From assembly GCA_003133565.1 (NCBI GenBank), contig PKYB01000076.1:86130-118219 (forward strand): 32,090 bases of DNA, read 5' to 3'. Below, piece after piece: positions 25,690 to 32,090 of this stretch. The stretch comes from Solirubrobacterales bacterium (GTDB lineage: Bacteria > Actinomycetota > Thermoleophilia > Solirubrobacterales > Solirubrobacteraceae). Under the pieces are notes generated by a model. It was not told where the DNA came from. It saw only the letters and a program-made list of their open reading frames with translations, and did no database searches. The translations under genes were made by a program, and so were the position numbers. Position 1 is the stretch's first letter, and each line of letters starts with the position of its first letter.

Positions 25690-25962
25690 GCGCCGAGAAC
25701 GACCTCTTCACCGAGCGCGAGGAGCTGGCGCTCGACTACGTGGCCGCCTTCATGCGCACCCCGCCAGAGGTACCCGACTACCTCTTCGGCCGGATGAAGG
25801 AGCACTTCAGAGACGAGCAGCTCGCCGACATCGCAAGCACTGCTCGCGCTCGTCAACCTCGGCCAGTTCAAGCGCCTATGACATCGGCTGGCCGGTTTCA
25901 GCGACGGAATGGTCTGCCTGCGGCCCGCCCGACCAGCCGCCAAATCCGCGTTCGCCGGGTAA
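25690..25962 (+). pseudogene. Decayed carboxymuconolactone-decarboxylase (AhpD-like) family gene
   Basis: Frame 1 reads RENDLFTEREELALDY, VAAFMRTPPEVPDYLFGRMK and EHFRDEQLADI, the N-terminal helices of CMD-family proteins with the start missing because the tetR gene abuts it. Around 25830 the homology moves to another frame: QALLALVNLGQFKRL, then an in-frame TGA (25879-25881), then HRLAGFSDGMVCLRPAR to TAA 25960. So there is a truncated 5' end, one frameshift and one nonsense codon. CMD proteins are small helical hydroperoxidases or decarboxylases. The rest of this 380-bp gap (25963-26066) holds a small hairpin and the next ribosome binding site. Confidence 0.65.
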
Positions 25963-25999
25963 CGCTCCCACGCACAGCCCGAGGCCTCCAAATCGGCAA

Positions 26000-26019
26000 C
26001 AACCTCGATGCCGAGGTTG
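26000..26019. other. Small perfect hairpin upstream of the cNMP-binding gene
   Basis: CAACCTCG (26000-26007) and CGAGGTTG (26012-26019) form a perfect 8-bp stem with a 4-base loop, 47 bp before the ATG of the cyclic-nucleotide-binding protein. It could be a terminator for read-through from the tetR/pseudogene side or an operator. There is no U-tract. Confidence 0.35.
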
Positions 26020-26066
26020 CATATCATCACGATTCCTGACCGAAACTGCGATCGAGGGAGCCGTAG

Positions 26067-26444
26067 ATGTCGAGCGTTGAGTCGCACGAGGCGCTGTACA
26101 CGTTGCTCGGGCGAGCTGGCACGACGGTGCCGTTCTCGGCTGGCGAGATTGTGTTCGAGAAGGGTGACCACGGCGACGCGATGTTCGTCGTGACGAGCGG
26201 GACGGTCGTGCTCAAGGACGGCGACCAAACGTATGACACCGTGGCGGCGCCGGGGCTCTTCGGAGAGATGGCGCTGATCGAGTCCAAGCCGCGGGCGCTC
26301 ACCGCGGTCGCAGACGATGAGGTCGAGTTGGTCCAGATCCCCGCGCGAACCTTCTGGGTCCTCGTCCACGAGACGCCCTATTTCGCACAGCTGGTTATGT
26401 CAGTCATGGCAGACCGGCTCCGTCGCGCCAGCGGAACAGGCTGA
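26067..26444 (+). CDS. Stand-alone cyclic-nucleotide-binding domain protein
   Basis: 125 residues, one CRP/PKA-type cNMP-binding domain and nothing else. The beta-roll starts VPFSAGEIVFEKGDHGDAMF, and the phosphate-binding cassette reads FGEMALIESKPRALTAVA, with the Glu and Arg that contact the ribose and phosphate retained. It has no HTH and no membrane segment. AGGGAG lies about 7 bases before the ATG. It is convergent with the MFS-cNMP fusion gene and near a nucleotidyl cyclase. A small protein of this type can serve as a cNMP sensor that binds a partner, or as a buffer; which applies is unknown. Confidence 0.88.
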   Translation: MSSVESHEALYTLLGRAGTTVPFSAGEIVFEKGDHGDAMFVVTSGTVVLKDGDQTYDTVAAPGLFGEMALIESKPRALTAVADDEVELVQIPARTFWVLVHETPYFAQLVMSVMADRLRRASGTG

Positions 26445-26452
26445 GGCGGGCT

Positions 26453-26474
26453 GCCGTCGGTCGCTTGCGACGGC
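26453..26474. terminator. Hairpin between convergent cNMP-binding genes
   Basis: GCCGTCG (26453-26459) and CGACGGC (26468-26474) form a perfect 7-bp stem with an 8-base loop, eight bases past the stop of the plus-strand gene and 33 bases past that of the minus-strand gene. It is placed to terminate both. Confidence 0.5.
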
Positions 26475-26507
26475 CGCGATGTGGGAGTCGGAGCTCCCTC
26501 GCATCGG

Positions 26508-28148
26508 TTACTGAATCTGGCTCGAGCCTGCGGAGCTGAGGTAGTTCGTCGCGATCTCCTGCGCGGCCTCGTGGCTCTCGCGCAGCCCCGTGACCGCGGT
26601 CAGGAACCGGTCGCGGTCGAGCGCGAGCAGGCGCGTCGGAGTGACCGTGCGCACCGTGGCGGTGCGGGGCACGTCGCGCAGCAGCGCGATCTCGCCGAAG
26701 CCCTGTCCGGCGCCGAGTCGCGTCTGAAACTCATCGTCCTTAATAACCTCGACCTCGCCGTTGGCGATTAGGAACCAGAGGTCGCCTGGGTCGCCCTGGC
26801 GAATGACAACGTGACCCGTCGGGAGGGAGATTTCGCGGAGCGCGCGGGTCAGCGATTCGGTGACGCCGATCGGCATCGGCGCAAAAATGGGACTGGCCCG
26901 CAACAGCTCGAAGCTTTCGCCCGGCACCGGGACGCCGGCCTCGAGGTTGCGCAGCGACCGTTGGCTCAGGATCGCGATCAGCGGCAGGAAGACACCGGAG
27001 GCGATCAGCGCGCCCTTCCTTCCGAAGGCCGACACCAACGCAGGGGCGACGATTGCGCCGATCCCGATACCGGCGACGAAGGTGGTCTCCAGCACCCCAA
27101 GCACGCGCGAGAGCACACGATCCTCTGTCAGTCGTTGCAGCAGCGTGAGGCCGGTACCTTTCACCAAGGCGTAGCCGAGCCCAACTGCTGCCCAGGCAAT
27201 CAGCGCCGTGGCCGGGACCGGCACGATGCCAACGAGGACCAGTGGCAGGCACAGCGCGCATGCGCCGACGAGCACGGCAGCAACTGGTATCGACCTCTCA
27301 AGTAGCGCTATTGCGGCGATACCGGCGAGCACTCCGCCCGCACCATAAGCCGCGCTCAGATACCCCACGCCCGCGGCTCCGGCGTGCAGCAGGCTGATCG
27401 CGGTGACCACGACCAGGACGTTCGCGAGCCCGCCCGTGACCGAGAGGCTTGCCAGCAGCAGCACAAGCAAACGGAGCTGATGCTGCGCGCTGACAGTTTG
27501 AAATCCCGTCGTGATCTCCTGAACTAGTCCGAGTTTCGCCCGGCGGTTCTTTGGTCGAGCGTCTCGTGGGAGTGCGGCGATCATCCACAAGCTGATCAGG
27601 TATGCGAGTGCGCAGGCGCCGACCACCGCCTGGGTGCTCGTGGCTGCGACCATCACACCGCCGCCGCCAGCGCCCACGAGAAAGCCGGCGTTGTCGAGCG
27701 AGCTCACGACGGCATTGGCGCTGGATGCCTCGCTCGGGACACGAGACAGCGCCGGGATCAGCGCCGCGCGTGCCGGCTGGTTCGCGGTCGAGACCATGCT
27801 GTACAGCACCGCCAAGGCAAATACGACAGCTGCGGGAGCATGTGCCCACATCGCCGCAGCGGCTCCAGCCAGCATCGCCGTCCGGGCCGCGTTGGTCACT
27901 AACAGGACTTGCTTGCGCGAGTGCCGATCCCCCAGCCACGCAAGGACCGGCGCCGCGAGTACTGACGGAAAGGCCTGCAAGAGCAGCACGACACCAACGA
28001 GCGTGGTGCCTCCCGTGCGATACGCATACACAGCCAGCGCCACGCCGAAGCCCCATTTCCCGACCGATGTGGCACCAGTCGACGCCGCGAGCAGACGTAG
28101 GCCTCGATTTGCCATGACAGCGCGAATCGACCCGCGCACGGTTGTCAC
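26508..28148 (-). CDS. MFS transporter fused to a C-terminal cyclic-nucleotide-binding domain
   Basis: 546 residues from GTG 28148. The frame stays open to TTG 28334, but that part overlaps the DUF3307 gene and has non-coding composition; ATG 28115 is the other reasonable start. About 12 membrane segments with an MFS motif A-like loop LAWLGDRHSRKQVLLVTN are followed by a cytoplasmic cNMP domain over the last 120 or so residues: HVVIRQGDPGDLWFLIANG and the cassette FGEIALLRDVPRTATVRT, with Glu and Arg intact. The fusion suggests transport gated by cAMP or cGMP. The substrate is unknown; the MFS part resembles macrolide-efflux-like permeases. A cyclase gene lies 664 bp upstream on the same strand. 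Confidence 0.88.
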   Translation of the reverse strand: MTTVRGSIRAVMANRGLRLLAASTGATSVGKWGFGVALAVYAYRTGGTTLVGVVLLLQAFPSVLAAPVLAWLGDRHSRKQVLLVTNAARTAMLAGAAAAMWAHAPAAVVFALAVLYSMVSTANQPARAALIPALSRVPSEASSANAVVSSLDNAGFLVGAGGGGVMVAATSTQAVVGACALAYLISLWMIAALPRDARPKNRRAKLGLVQEITTGFQTVSAQHQLRLLVLLLASLSVTGGLANVLVVVTAISLLHAGAAGVGYLSAAYGAGGVLAGIAAIALLERSIPVAAVLVGACALCLPLVLVGIVPVPATALIAWAAVGLGYALVKGTGLTLLQRLTEDRVLSRVLGVLETTFVAGIGIGAIVAPALVSAFGRKGALIASGVFLPLIAILSQRSLRNLEAGVPVPGESFELLRASPIFAPMPIGVTESLTRALREISLPTGHVVIRQGDPGDLWFLIANGEVEVIKDDEFQTRLGAGQGFGEIALLRDVPRTATVRTVTPTRLLALDRDRFLTAVTGLRESHEAAQEIATNYLSSAGSSQIQ

Positions 28149-28275
28149 AGAGCCCGCGAGACGCAGTGCATCGTAGTTGCTCCGTCCCCCAGGAGTTCGC
28201 GGGAGCGGTGCTGGCGCAGCCGTCGAGGCACCATCGCCTTCGGCGCTCTTCCGAGCGGAGGATCGTTTTCGCGAT

Positions 28276-28671
28276 CTAGGCGGTGGCGAGGAGGGCAACG
28301 CCGAAGAGAGCCAAAATATGAAAGGACTGGTCAACCATCACGAAGAGGCGATCTCCGGGCGTCGCGGGAGAGCGTTTGACGACGCGGATGTACTGGATCA
28401 GGAGGCGGCCATCGTCCTGGAGAACATGGGGGACGACGATCAGAGCCAAGAGACCGATTGACCAAGCGCCCGGTCGTCCATCGACCGCCAGCCATACTGT
28501 CGCGGGAATGAACGCCACGAGGTAGCTAGCCCCGTGTGCGAGCAGCGCCCATGGCTTTCCTCCTCCGCCTAGTGCGCCGAACTTGTTCCGCGCTTGCCAT
28601 CCGGTCTGGAACAGGAAGTCACCGACCAGGTGCGACACCACGAATACCAGAAAAATGTCGGACCAGCGCAT
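28276..28671 (-). CDS. DUF3307 membrane protein
   Basis: 131 residues from ATG 28671; an in-frame GTG at 28713 would add 14 hydrophilic residues. Typical DUF3307 pattern: FLVFVVSHLVGDFLFQTGWQ at the N-terminus with conserved His, Asp and Gln inside the first helix, LLAHGASYLVAF, then VVPHVLQDDGRLL and a final hydrophobic helix. Three to four membrane segments are expected. The family has no assigned function; conserved polar residues in the membrane suggest a small intramembrane enzyme or metal site. It lies between the cyclase and the MFS-cNMP gene on the same strand. Confidence 0.82.
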   Translation of the reverse strand: MRWSDIFLVFVVSHLVGDFLFQTGWQARNKFGALGGGGKPWALLAHGASYLVAFIPATVWLAVDGRPGAWSIGLLALIVVPHVLQDDGRLLIQYIRVVKRSPATPGDRLFVMVDQSFHILALFGVALLATA

Positions 28672-28773
28672 GGCTAGCGGAGCCGCCCGGTCGCCGTGAG
28701 GGTCACCGAGCACGTGGCGGTCAGCGACCGACCCATCTCGCCGGCGGCAATGTATCTGGGAGTGCGCGGTTGA

Positions 28774-28788
28774 GTCCGGTGCCCGGAC
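28774..28788 (-). terminator. Hairpin after the cyclase gene
   Basis: GTCCGG-TGC-CCGGAC is a perfect 6-bp stem with a 3-base loop, 23 bases past the cyclase stop on the minus strand. A second inverted pair, GTGAGT (28790-28795) and ACTCAC (28810-28815), includes the stop codon. Either may end or attenuate the cyclase transcript before DUF3307. Confidence 0.45.
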
Positions 28789-28811
28789 CGTGAGTTAGCG
28801 TGATGTGACAC

Positions 28812-30686
28812 TCACATCCTTTCCGTGGGAGGCTGACGCGACGCGGCCGACGGGTCATCTGACGGTTGCGCCACTGTGACGTGCGGCACATCTGCCGCGG
28901 TGAAAAGGGTGTAAACGGCCATTTTCCCGACCCGCCCACGGATCTCCACGTCGTCGACAAACACGAGGTCGTCCGGGGTCGCTCGCATCCGCTGAAGCGT
29001 CGTCTCGGCAACGAACAGCATGTGCGGGGTGTCCTTGGTGAGGCCCTCGAGCCGCGACGCGGTGTTGACGGGGTCGCCGATCACCGTGTATTCCACTCGT
29101 TCCGCGGAGCCAACGTTGCCCGCCATGACGATGCCGCTGTTGAGGCCAATCCCCATGCGGAAAGCGTGCTCATAGCCCTGTTCGTGCAGCCAGTCGTTGA
29201 AGCGGGCGAGCCGCGGACCAAGCATCTCGCGGGCTGCAACTAGCGCGCGATCGGCATGATCGGGCTGGTCAATTGGTGCGCCGAAGAGCGCCAGAATGCC
29301 GTCACCGATGTAGGAGATCAGCGTGCCACCGGCGTCGAGCACGGCCTCCGTCATCTCGTTCAGGTAGACGTTGACCACCTCGATTACCTTCGCTGCGGGC
29401 TCGGACTCCGAGAAGCTTGTGAAGCCGCGCAGGTCGGTGAACAGCACCGTGCACTCGCGTTCTACGCCGCCGAGCCGAAAGTCGTCGTCGGTGCGCGCCA
29501 GCACGTCGTCGACAACGTCGGGCGGGACGAAGCGAGCGAAGATGTCGCGTGCGTGTTGGCGCTCGAACGCTTCGCCCAAGAGCACGACGGTGAGAGTGGC
29601 GATAATCGCCAGCACAAGCGTCAACAGCGGGTATGTGTAGGCGACGATCGTGCCGTCGTCGAACGCGATTTGGGTAGCGACGGTGAACAGCGCGGCGAGC
29701 GCAAACGAGGCGAGCAGCGCGCGCCACACGCGAATGCGGATGCTCGACAGCGGTGCCACCAAGCCGAACAGCACGACCAGCGCGAGGTTCAGCCACGCCG
29801 GGCCGTTGCGCAACGGGATGCCGGCGAGCGCGGTCGCTGCGATGTTGGCCTGAACCTCGGGACCGTCCATCTCCTGCGAGCCGGAGGTTGGCGTCGAGTG
29901 GAGGTCCTGGAGTCGCGCAGCCTCGGCGCCGACGATCACGATCTTGCCATTTGCCTGAGCTGCGGGGAACTTGTTGGCGTACACCCTCCAGTAGGGGATC
30001 GCGGTCACGGTGCCCGGCGGTCCGGCGAAGTCGATCGGCACCCGGTGCTCGGCGCCGCCGAAGAGCTTGGGGCTGATTTCGTGGCCGGCGGCGTTCGAGG
30101 CAATCGCCACGCCGAACGTGTCGATCCCCTGGTAGGAGTGCTGCATGTCGCGCAGCTCCCCTTCGGAGTCAGTGATCACCGTCGAGTTGGCGGCGCGCGC
30201 GCCGACCTGTCGGAGCACGGCATTGCCACCGAGTACGTCGGTCTGGCCACCCGCTGCAACGGCGTCAGTCGCGAGCACCATGTTGTGGGCGCGCGCGACC
30301 GCCTCGATCAAGGCGTTGTCATCGACGACGTCGGTTGGCTCGGTGAACTGGACGTCGAAGGCAATCAGTCGGGCGCCTGCGGCGAGCAGATGATCGATCA
30401 CGAGGGCGTCGTCGCGCCGCGGGAACGGCCACTGGTAGCTGACGCTCGGGTTCTTCGCGTGAAGCGCGCCGAAGTAGTCGAACGTCCCCTCGTCGACGTC
30501 GACAACAACCAAGTCCTTGACGAGCGATGGCCGCGACCCGCGGATGGCAAAGCGAGCATCGATCGACTGGGCCTCGAGCGGGTAGAGCAGGCCGGTCGCG
30601 TAGGCGAGAACTCCCAGCCCGACGGTCGCAACCGTCACGGCCGCCAGGAGCAGCCGCTTCCGTCTCAACCAGGCGCGTCGCCGCAT
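28812..30686 (-). CDS. CHASE2-domain class III adenylate/guanylate cyclase
   Basis: 624 residues. TM1 at about 11-32, an extracytoplasmic CHASE2 sensor (about 35-290, with VVDVDEGTF, WPFPRRDDALVIDHLLAAGA and FDVQFTEP), three membrane helices at about 298-370, then a cytoplasmic class III cyclase domain (about 405-600). The two metal-binding aspartates are D418 (FTDLRGF) and D462 (YIGDG); the transition-state pair is N541 and R545 (VNTASRLEG). The purine-selecting positions are S458, where Lys is usual, and T534. The domain should make a cyclic nucleotide in response to an external signal, but cAMP versus cGMP cannot be fixed. It is a likely source of signal for the two cNMP-binding proteins nearby. 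Confidence 0.93.
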   Translation of the reverse strand: MRRRAWLRRKRLLLAAVTVATVGLGVLAYATGLLYPLEAQSIDARFAIRGSRPSLVKDLVVVDVDEGTFDYFGALHAKNPSVSYQWPFPRRDDALVIDHLLAAGARLIAFDVQFTEPTDVVDDNALIEAVARAHNMVLATDAVAAGGQTDVLGGNAVLRQVGARAANSTVITDSEGELRDMQHSYQGIDTFGVAIASNAAGHEISPKLFGGAEHRVPIDFAGPPGTVTAIPYWRVYANKFPAAQANGKIVIVGAEAARLQDLHSTPTSGSQEMDGPEVQANIAATALAGIPLRNGPAWLNLALVVLFGLVAPLSSIRIRVWRALLASFALAALFTVATQIAFDDGTIVAYTYPLLTLVLAIIATLTVVLLGEAFERQHARDIFARFVPPDVVDDVLARTDDDFRLGGVERECTVLFTDLRGFTSFSESEPAAKVIEVVNVYLNEMTEAVLDAGGTLISYIGDGILALFGAPIDQPDHADRALVAAREMLGPRLARFNDWLHEQGYEHAFRMGIGLNSGIVMAGNVGSAERVEYTVIGDPVNTASRLEGLTKDTPHMLFVAETTLQRMRATPDDLVFVDDVEIRGRVGKMAVYTLFTAADVPHVTVAQPSDDPSAASRQPPTERM

Positions 30687-31092: not shown

Positions 31093-32090
31093 ATGCGTAA
31101 GCCTCGCCGCACGGTCGCGCTAGCTTCGCTGTTTGCGCTCGTCGCCGCGGTTTCAGTCCTTGGGCTCTTCTCCTCGGCCCAGGCGGCGCCGCCAGATCCG
31201 AACACGGTCGGCTTCGACACCGTCAGCAACATCGCGCTCAACGGCGCGTCGGGCACAACGCTTACGGTGGCACCGGGCGCCGACGTGTCGATCAGCGCCG
31301 ACTGGTCCGATTCGCACCCGAGCTACTGCCTTGGCTGCATCGACTTTCTGGCCGTTGGTTTTGTTGGACAGGATCCGCAGGCAGGGTGCCTCGAGAACGA
31401 CGGTTACACGGGGGACAGCGGATCCGCCACCGTCGGCTTAGGCGATGCACCCACCGCGCCTGGAACGTACGACATCGTTGCCGAATACGAACTGCAGTAC
31501 GTCTGCGGGGGAGGCTGGGATCCCTCGGGAGCCAGCGGTGTTGTGATCGCTGAGATCAGGGTTGCTGCGCCGCCGTCGGCGACGATCACCTCGCCCGCTG
31601 ACGACCAGACCTACAACCTTGGCGCGCACGTCACGACTGACTTCTCCTGCGCGGACCCGACTGGGCCGGGGATCGCGAGCTGTCTTGATTCCAACGGCGA
31701 CGCGAGCTCCGGCACGCTCGATACGAGTGGTGCGGGTACGTTCGCCTACTCGGTGACCGCGACGAGCACCGACGGCCAGGCCACGACGGCGACGATCCAC
31801 TACACGGTGTTGGGGCCGCCGACGGCAACGATCACCTCGCCAGCCGACGAGCAGACCTTTGCCGTTGGTCAGCCCGTCGCGACCGGTTTCGGTTGCGTCG
31901 ACGCGACAAACGGGCCCGGGATCGCGAGCTGTCTTGATTCCAACGGCGACACCAGCCCGGGCACGCTCGACACCAGTACTACCGGCACGTTTGCCTACAG
32001 CGTGACCGCGACCAGCACCGACGGGCAGGCTACGACGACGACGATCCACTACAAAGTTGCTGCGCCACCGACCGCGACGATCACCTCGCC
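31093..32090 (+). CDS. Secreted protein with tandem Ig-like repeats (3' part outside window)
   Basis: From ATG 31093, preceded by GAGG at 8 bases, the frame stays open for 332 codons to the window edge. A signal peptide covers about residues 1-31 ([20 protein letters not shown]...AQA). A unique domain with paired cysteines ([14 protein letters not shown]) runs to about 157. Repeats of 82-83 residues then begin, each opening ATITSPAD, continuing with [12 protein letters not shown] and GTLDTS, and closing with [17 protein letters not shown]. Two full units and the start of a third are present. These are bacterial Ig-like/HYR-type folds with a likely intradomain disulfide, typical of surface adhesins or cell-wall spacers. 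Total length and anchoring signal are unknown. Confidence 0.88.
31571..32090 (+). repeat. Tandem 246/249-bp repeats encoding Ig-like domains
   Basis: ACGATCACCTCGCC recurs at 31582, 31828 and 32077, giving periods of 246 and 249 bp. Within the units, long stretches such as GGGATCGCGAGCTGTCTTGA are identical between copies, while the segments around them vary. The pattern suggests recent duplication with local divergence. The array continues past the window end. Confidence 0.85.

What the first reader, a model, noticed from the sequence alone, without database searches (positions are those of the whole stretch)
26067..30686. Compact cyclic-nucleotide module: cyclase, cNMP-gated MFS transporter and a lone cNMP-binding protein
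Within 4.6 kb there is a CHASE2 class III cyclase, an MFS permease with a fused intact cNMP-binding cassette, and a 125-residue protein that is only a cNMP-binding domain. A DUF3307 membrane protein lies between. None has an HTH, so the pathway would act on transport rather than transcription. MFS pumps with cNMP domains are known only as annotations; direct gating by cAMP/cGMP would be a new mode of regulation.
Basis: partly seen in the sequence, partly recalled or inferred. Interest (0 to 1): 0.62.

Follow-up and report, generated by a model that had tools for sequence, protein, structure and literature searches.

The report
Membrane cyclase paired with nucleotide-sensing transporter
A soil-type actinobacterium carries, side by side, an envelope-sensing enzyme that should make a cyclic nucleotide messenger and a transporter built to bind one; the pairing recurs in related genomes, so direct messenger control of a transporter can now be tested, though nothing has been shown at the bench.

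Summary
All are under purifying selection (dN/dS 0.13-0.39), and both cNBDs have canonical phosphate-binding cassettes. The linkage is not chance. In relatives (order Solirubrobacterales, by inference), 18 of 34 loci of this cyclase lie within 5 kb of a cNBD gene against 0.47 expected; without the own genus, 14 of 30 against 0.40. The neighbouring effector varies: MFS-cNBD, lone cNBD, cNBD-patatin, cNBD-HD_5 or Crp-type regulator. The cassette is larger than reported. A secreted protein with a FecR-like C-terminal domain lies beside the cyclase in 28 of 34 loci (in the window, the gene at 31093, cut by the contig end). DUF3307 lies beside a cyclase or cNBD in 14 of 18 loci. Unexpectedly, this cyclase clade lacks the adenine-selecting lysine (Ser here) that most CHASE2 cyclases checked outside it keep, so its product is uncertain. 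MFS-cNBD fusions are already known as annotations. Best reading: an envelope signal controls transport directly through a cyclic nucleotide. Binding and gating are inferred.

The parts
26067..26444 (+). Lone cyclic-nucleotide-binding protein, 125 aa
   Evidence: PF00027 E 1.2e-18; 84-86% identical orthologues at the same place in two genus-mates; dN/dS 0.18-0.39; relative (E 4e-22) beside an MFS-2xcNBD in an Acidimicrobiaceae MAG, L199
26259..26297 (+). Phosphate-binding cassette of the lone cNBD, FGEMALIESKPRA
   Evidence: alignment; canonical motif from PMC2246266
26508..28334 (-). MFS transporter with C-terminal cNBD (608 aa from TTG; true start possibly GTG at 28148 or 28139)
   Evidence: MFS_1 and PF00027; AF2 pLDDT 85.6, MFS part matches NorA/SPNS2/FLVCR and the C-terminal part matches PfPKA-R/MloK1 in PDB
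26598..26831 (-). cNMP-binding domain of the fusion
   Evidence: PF00027 9.3e-19
26661..26699 (-). Phosphate-binding cassette of the fusion, FGEIALLRDVPRT
   Evidence: Glu and Arg invariant in 32 aligned fusions; Arg was not part of the retrieval pattern
28276..28713 (-). DUF3307 membrane protein, 145 aa
   Evidence: PF11750 25.8 bits; conserved next to cyclase or cNBD in 14 of 18 loci; AF2 pLDDT 91.4
28812..30686 (-). CHASE2 class III nucleotidyl cyclase, 624 aa
29760..30614 (-). CHASE2 extracytoplasmic sensor domain
   Evidence: PF05226 E 1.9e-34
28905..29456 (-). Class III cyclase catalytic domain; metal Asp418/Asp462, transition-state Asn541/Arg545
   Evidence: PF00211 E 2e-19; alignments to solved cyclases; motif table
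29313..29315 (-). Ser458 codon, at the position of the adenine-selecting lysine
   Evidence: Non-Lys in all clade members; Lys in CHASE2 cyclases L251-L255 and in CyaK L226
31093..32088 (+). Secreted Big_7-repeat protein, divergent from the cyclase, cut by the contig end; full orthologues end in a FecR-like domain
   Evidence: Big_7; orthologues L144:9670-13212 and L145; FecR-like profile

Best explanation
This is a membrane signalling cassette. A secreted FecR-like repeat protein and the CHASE2 domain of the cyclase form the envelope-facing input. The cytoplasmic class III domain makes a cyclic nucleotide. The nucleotide binds the cNBD fused to the C-terminus of an MFS exporter and changes transport, while the lone cNBD serves as a second receptor or buffer and DUF3307 is a membrane accessory of the cyclase. 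Shown here: the gene and domain content, catalytic and binding-cassette residues, purifying selection, and strong conserved linkage of cyclase, FecR-like protein, DUF3307 and cNBD effectors. Inferred: cyclase activity, nucleotide identity, binding by the cNBDs, gating of the MFS, and the roles of the FecR-like protein, DUF3307 and the lone cNBD. The transported substrate is unknown.
For: Linkage: a cNBD within 5 kb of the CHASE2 cyclase in 18 of 34 loci vs 0.47 expected; own genus excluded, 14 of 30 vs 0.40, in 13 of 24 genomes. MFS-cNBD beside it in the own genus and in G005, G057, G060 and G216; in G002 a distant MFS-2xcNBD (32% identity) takes the same place. On a tree of 97 fusions the linkage needs 4 changes of state. 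FecR-like protein in 28 of 34 cyclase loci. DUF3307 beside cyclase or cNBD in 14 of 18 loci, in several gene orders. Canonical cassettes. Metal and transition-state residues kept. dN/dS 0.13-0.39. The fusion model folds as an MFS plus a cAMP-receptor-like domain. No Crp-type cNBD among the over-threshold matches in this assembly.
Against: No binding, cyclase or transport data exist. The adenine-selecting Lys is Ser, so cAMP synthesis is not assured. 16 of 34 cyclase loci have no cNBD within 5 kb. Most MFS-cNBD fusions (66 of 80 named loci) have no class III cyclase within the fetched flanks, some of them short, so the pairing is not obligatory. The lone cNBD is convergent, not in the operon. 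The Poisson test ignores phylogenetic dependence. The FecR assignment is individually weak (9 of 24 members, best E 1.3e-4). Genomes are drafts.
Confidence: 0.55

Rival explanations
1. The MFS-cNBD exports the cyclic nucleotide itself, the cNBD acting as a threshold sensor, so the transporter ends the signal rather than being its target.
For: The cNBD is fused directly to an exporter-type MFS (closest curated family is the H+ antiporter subfamily TIGR00900, sub-threshold) and sits beside the cyclase.
Against: No sequence feature points to a nucleotide substrate; most MFS-cNBD genes lie away from any cyclase.
Confidence: 0.12
2. The neighbours are coincidental: the cNBD of the MFS answers cyclic nucleotide from any source, or another ligand, and has no special tie to this cyclase.
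For: 66 of 80 named fusion loci show no class III cyclase in the fetched flanks; cNBDs can bind other ligands (PMC2246266).
Against: 18 of 34 vs 0.47 expected; linkage kept across genera and in one other family of the order.
Confidence: 0.2
3. A Pycsar-like anti-phage system in which the cyclase makes cUMP/cCMP and a cNBD membrane protein is the killer effector.
For: PADLOC PycC profiles hit the catalytic domain (best E 3.3e-23) and PycTIR profiles hit the cNBDs; the canonical Lys is missing.
Against: These hits cover only the shared cyclase and cNBD folds, and there is no TIR or PycTM effector; there is an extracytoplasmic CHASE2 sensor and a FecR-like partner; the effector is an MFS; the locus is conserved within the genus; the R142/Q144 CTP-recognition residues of EaPycC (PMC11224242) are not matched (Ser458/Ile460 here, position mapping by me).
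Confidence: 0.04
4. The cNBDs or the cyclase are degenerate and the cassette no longer signals.
For: Lys-to-Ser in the base pocket.
Against: Metal and transition-state residues and both cassettes intact; dN/dS well below 1; the non-Lys residue is shared by the whole clade.
Confidence: 0.06

Closest known systems
MFS transporters fused to CNBDs (noted in review PMC10710835; MFS-cNBD-patatin proteins L063 and L108 here)
   Same: MFS domain with a C-terminal cNBD
   Different: Here linked to a CHASE2 cyclase, FecR-like protein, DUF3307 and a lone cNBD; the review mentions the fusions as a domain architecture, with no gating experiment in the passage read
Cyclic-nucleotide-gated channels such as MloK1 (Mll3241)
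   Same: Membrane transport protein with a C-terminal cNBD; the fold of the fusion's cNBD matches MloK1
   Different: Secondary transporter of the MFS fold, not a cation channel
Sinorhizobium meliloti CHASE2 cyclases CyaD1/CyaD2/CyaK with Clr
   Same: CHASE2 class III cyclase with an envelope partner (NsrA) and a cNBD receptor (PMC13001267)
   Different: Receptor there is a transcription factor; CyaK keeps the adenine-selecting Lys, this clade does not
FecR / CHASE2-histidine-kinase operon of Burkholderia (PMC5192318)
   Same: Extracytoplasmic FecR-domain protein encoded beside a CHASE2 sensor
   Different: Output there is a two-component system, not a cyclase
M. tuberculosis Rv2561 cyclase-like protein near cNBD proteins Rv2564/Rv2565 (PMC4886424)
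   Same: Predicted gene-neighbour association of cyclase and cNBD effectors
   Different: Different cyclase family, discussed there without CHASE2, FecR or DUF3307
Pycsar (PycC plus PycTM/PycTIR)
   Same: Class III cyclase plus cNBD effector
   Different: Different effector, sensor and base-pocket residues; see membership test

Membership tests
Class III nucleotidyl cyclase | Catalytic fold with two metal Asp and transition-state Asn/Arg | tested here: met
   PF00211 E 2e-19; D418, D462, N541, R545
Class III adenylyl cyclase (substrate ATP) | Base-selecting Lys plus Asp/Thr | tested here: not met
   Ser458 and Thr534; Lys absent in all clade members. PMC4215837: K101E in Ma1120 lowers but does not abolish AC activity
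Guanylyl cyclase | Glu at the base-selecting position | tested here: not met
   Ser458
CHASE2 receptor | CHASE2 domain over cut-off, N-terminal, flanked by membrane helices | tested here: met
   PF05226 119.8 bits; hydropathy peaks at 12-30, 298-336 and 353-371
cAMP/cGMP-type CNB domain | Canonical phosphate-binding cassette FGE..AL...[PV]R and beta2-beta3 Gly | tested here: met
   Both domains
cAMP/cGMP-type CNB domain | Binds a cyclic nucleotide | not testable with these tools
   Needs biochemistry
MFS transporter | MFS fold and Pfam MFS over cut-off | tested here: met
   MFS_1 85.4 bits; Foldseek to NorA, SPNS2, FLVCR1/2 with probability 1.00
Pycsar | PycTM or PycTIR effector with a pyrimidine cyclase | tested here: not met
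   Only the shared folds match PADLOC models; no TIR or PycTM partner
Pycsar | Makes cUMP or cCMP | not testable with these tools
   Needs LC-MS
FecR-domain proteins (neighbour gene) | FecR domain over Pfam cut-off | tested here: inconclusive
   9 of 24 C-terminal domains match FecR individually (best E 1.3e-4); the two full-length hits were below the gathering score
DUF3307 | PF11750 over cut-off | tested here: met
   25.8 vs 23 bits; invariant residues shared with 14 relatives

The most novel reading that the evidence does not exclude
This CHASE2 cyclase clade, which has lost the adenine-selecting lysine, makes a cyclic nucleotide other than cAMP and uses it to gate a secondary transporter directly, with DUF3307 as a previously unrecognised membrane component of the pathway.
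Probability: 0.12. Interest if true: 0.82.

Novelty: new variant of a known kind. Interest (0 to 1): 0.52.

Why it matters
I know of no MFS transporter shown to be controlled by direct binding of a cyclic nucleotide; the fusions are recorded as a domain architecture (PMC10710835). A conserved cassette with its own sensor, messenger enzyme and transporter makes the question testable with few genes. It also links DUF3307, an uncharacterised family, to cyclic-nucleotide signalling, and points to a cyclase clade whose product cannot be read off the usual residues.

Tried and rejected
Chance adjacency in one genome: rejected by linkage counts and synteny. Pycsar membership: only shared folds match. 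A lysophospholipid-transport reading from MFS-cNBD-patatin proteins: dropped, because the MFS part of those proteins did not match the profile of this MFS subfamily. A first neighbour-clustering run was swamped by antisense shadow ORFs and was redone with overlap filtering. DUF3307 fold search in PDB gave no significant match. A profile search of the FecR-like domain against PDB gave only weak, unconvincing hits. The sigma-70 promoter scan found nothing, and terminator-like sites were at shuffle level. Paper searches for CHASE2 with cNBD neighbourhoods, and for MFS with patatin and cNBD, returned no paper; the only DUF3307 paper is a phage genome description.

Full report
Observation. The window holds, on the minus strand, a CHASE2 class III cyclase (30686-28812), a DUF3307 protein (28713-28276) and an MFS protein with a C-terminal cNBD (28334-26508), and, convergent on the plus strand, a 125-aa protein that is only a cNBD (26067-26444). 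Gaps are 98 bp between cyclase and DUF3307 and 63 bp between the two convergent stops. The MFS start is uncertain: the TTG at 28334 overlaps DUF3307, and in-frame GTGs at 28148/28139 lie closer to where homologues outside the genus start. The genes look real: dN/dS against genus-mates is 0.13-0.39 for all four (DUF3307 against one genus-mate only).

Genome background. The window lies in a 2.68-Mb draft assembly, 86% complete. It has five cNBD matches and two Guanylate_cyc matches. Four of the five cNBD proteins are over the Pfam cut-off: the two here, a second lone cNBD, and a cNBD-pyridine-nucleotide reductase; no Crp-type HTH was found in those. The fifth is sub-threshold and was not typed further. 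Contig lengths tie relatives G005, G057 and G216 to public records titled Solirubrobacterales or Actinomycetota/Actinobacteria, so I infer order Solirubrobacterales, class Thermoleophilia; the window itself is not named.

Linkage. Homologues of the cyclase were found in 29 of 61 genomes and their flanks fetched. Using profiles built in session, 18 of 34 catalytic loci have a cNBD gene within 5 kb; the genome-wide cNBD counts predict 0.47 (Poisson P about 1e-22). Leaving out the own genus it is 14 of 30 against 0.40 (P about 2e-17), in 13 of 24 genomes. The test treats loci as independent, which they are not, but the linkage recurs across many genera.

The output is exchangeable. By Pfam the cNBD neighbours are MFS-cNBD, lone cNBD, cNBD-patatin, MFS-cNBD-patatin, cNBD-HD_5 and, in four loci, Crp-type regulators. 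Several are cNBD proteins with no other recognised domain. MFS-cNBD stands beside the cyclase in the own genus, G005, G057 and G060 and G216 (the same record as L219). In G002, a genus-mate, the place is taken by a distant MFS with two cNBDs (32% identity). On a tree of 97 fusions the trait needs 4 changes of state. Across 80 named MFS-cNBD loci in Actinomycetota, Chloroflexota and others, 14 have a class III cyclase in the fetched flanks; I did not compute a background for that figure. The lone cNBD has a clear relative 178 bp from an MFS-2xcNBD in an Acidimicrobiaceae MAG (L199).

The input side. Neighbour clustering showed a secreted repeat protein beside the cyclase whose last ~100 residues share a motif (VRGTxWLVxDxCxGTL...VxDF...VRAGxSYxA). 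A profile of it hits 28 of 34 cyclase loci; two of the six misses (the window and G002) are at contig ends. The profile was built from the same loci, so the count describes conservation and is not an independent test. Nine of 24 members match Pfam FecR individually, best E 1.3e-4: FecR-like, not certain. In the window this is the Big_7 protein starting at 31093, cut by the contig end; the genus-mates carry the C-terminal domain. FecR beside a CHASE2 sensor is known from a Burkholderia histidine-kinase operon (PMC5192318).

DUF3307. Of 18 loci, 14 lie within 5 kb of a class III cyclase or cNBD, in co-directional, divergent and convergent arrangements. Fifteen aligned sequences share invariant H28, D32, Q36, Q40, H60, Y64, H96, D100, D101, R103, D128 and H132 among others, a polar pattern that could form a site inside a helix bundle (my inference). 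The AF2 model is confident (pLDDT 91.4) but matches nothing in PDB at E 0.001 or better. G003 keeps cyclase, MFS and lone cNBD without DUF3307, so it is not essential to the arrangement.

Binding and catalysis. Both cNBDs fit the canonical cassette and the beta2-beta3 Gly of PMC2246266. In 32 aligned fusions the cassette Glu and Arg are invariant; FGE was part of the retrieval pattern, the Arg was not. The cyclase keeps both metal Asp and the transition-state Asn/Arg. At the position of the adenine-selecting Lys it has Ser458; all members of this clade have Ser, Ala, Thr or Gly there, whereas CHASE2 cyclases elsewhere in the phylum (L251-L255) and S. meliloti CyaK have Lys, and a small separate group (L256-L258, no CHASE2 detected in the short contigs) has Asp. 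In Ma1120 the K101E change cuts AC activity without abolishing it (PMC4215837), so cAMP remains possible.

Transporter. The AF2 model (pLDDT 85.6) gives an MFS bundle, with Foldseek matches to NorA, SPNS2 and FLVCR1/2, joined to a cNBD that matches cAMP-bound PfPKA-R and MloK1. No substrate can be named.

Judgement. The cassette is real and functionally linked (I would put 0.9 on that). Direct control of the MFS by the cyclase product is the most economical reading but rests on inference (0.55). Pycsar is unlikely. The parts are known kinds; the combination and the Lys-less cyclase clade appear not to be described in the papers I could search, which cover open-access text only.

Noticed in passing
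window 31093-32088 and L144:9670-13212, L145: Secreted Big_7-repeat protein divergent from the cyclase with a FecR-like C-terminal domain in the orthologues; the family recurs beside CHASE2 proteins across the order.
   Followed up: yes
L074:11324-13978 (G000:C24, minus strand, near the contig end): A second Big_7 protein with a FecR-like end in the same genome, open at a contig end about 2.7 kb from the genome's other class III cyclase (AAA_16 type). It may be a paralogue or the continuation of the window's cut gene; not resolved.
   Followed up: partly
L130, L133-L137, L259: CHASE2 proteins without a cyclase domain (L130 is a hybrid histidine kinase) also lie beside FecR-like secreted proteins.
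   Followed up: partly
L237 (G203) and L070 (G023): DUF3307 near a tandem-cyclase-domain protein and, respectively, a lone cNBD or a glutaminase-cNBD, without CHASE2: the DUF3307 link to cyclic-nucleotide genes is wider than the CHASE2 link.
   Followed up: partly
L166, L176, L177, L186, L198, L201, L204: MFS-cNBD genes often occur as tandem or divergent pairs in Actinomycetota.
   Followed up: no
window 25740-26040: Open stretch between the TetR gene and the lone cNBD that looks like the remnant of a short enzyme gene (by eye, not tested).
   Followed up: no
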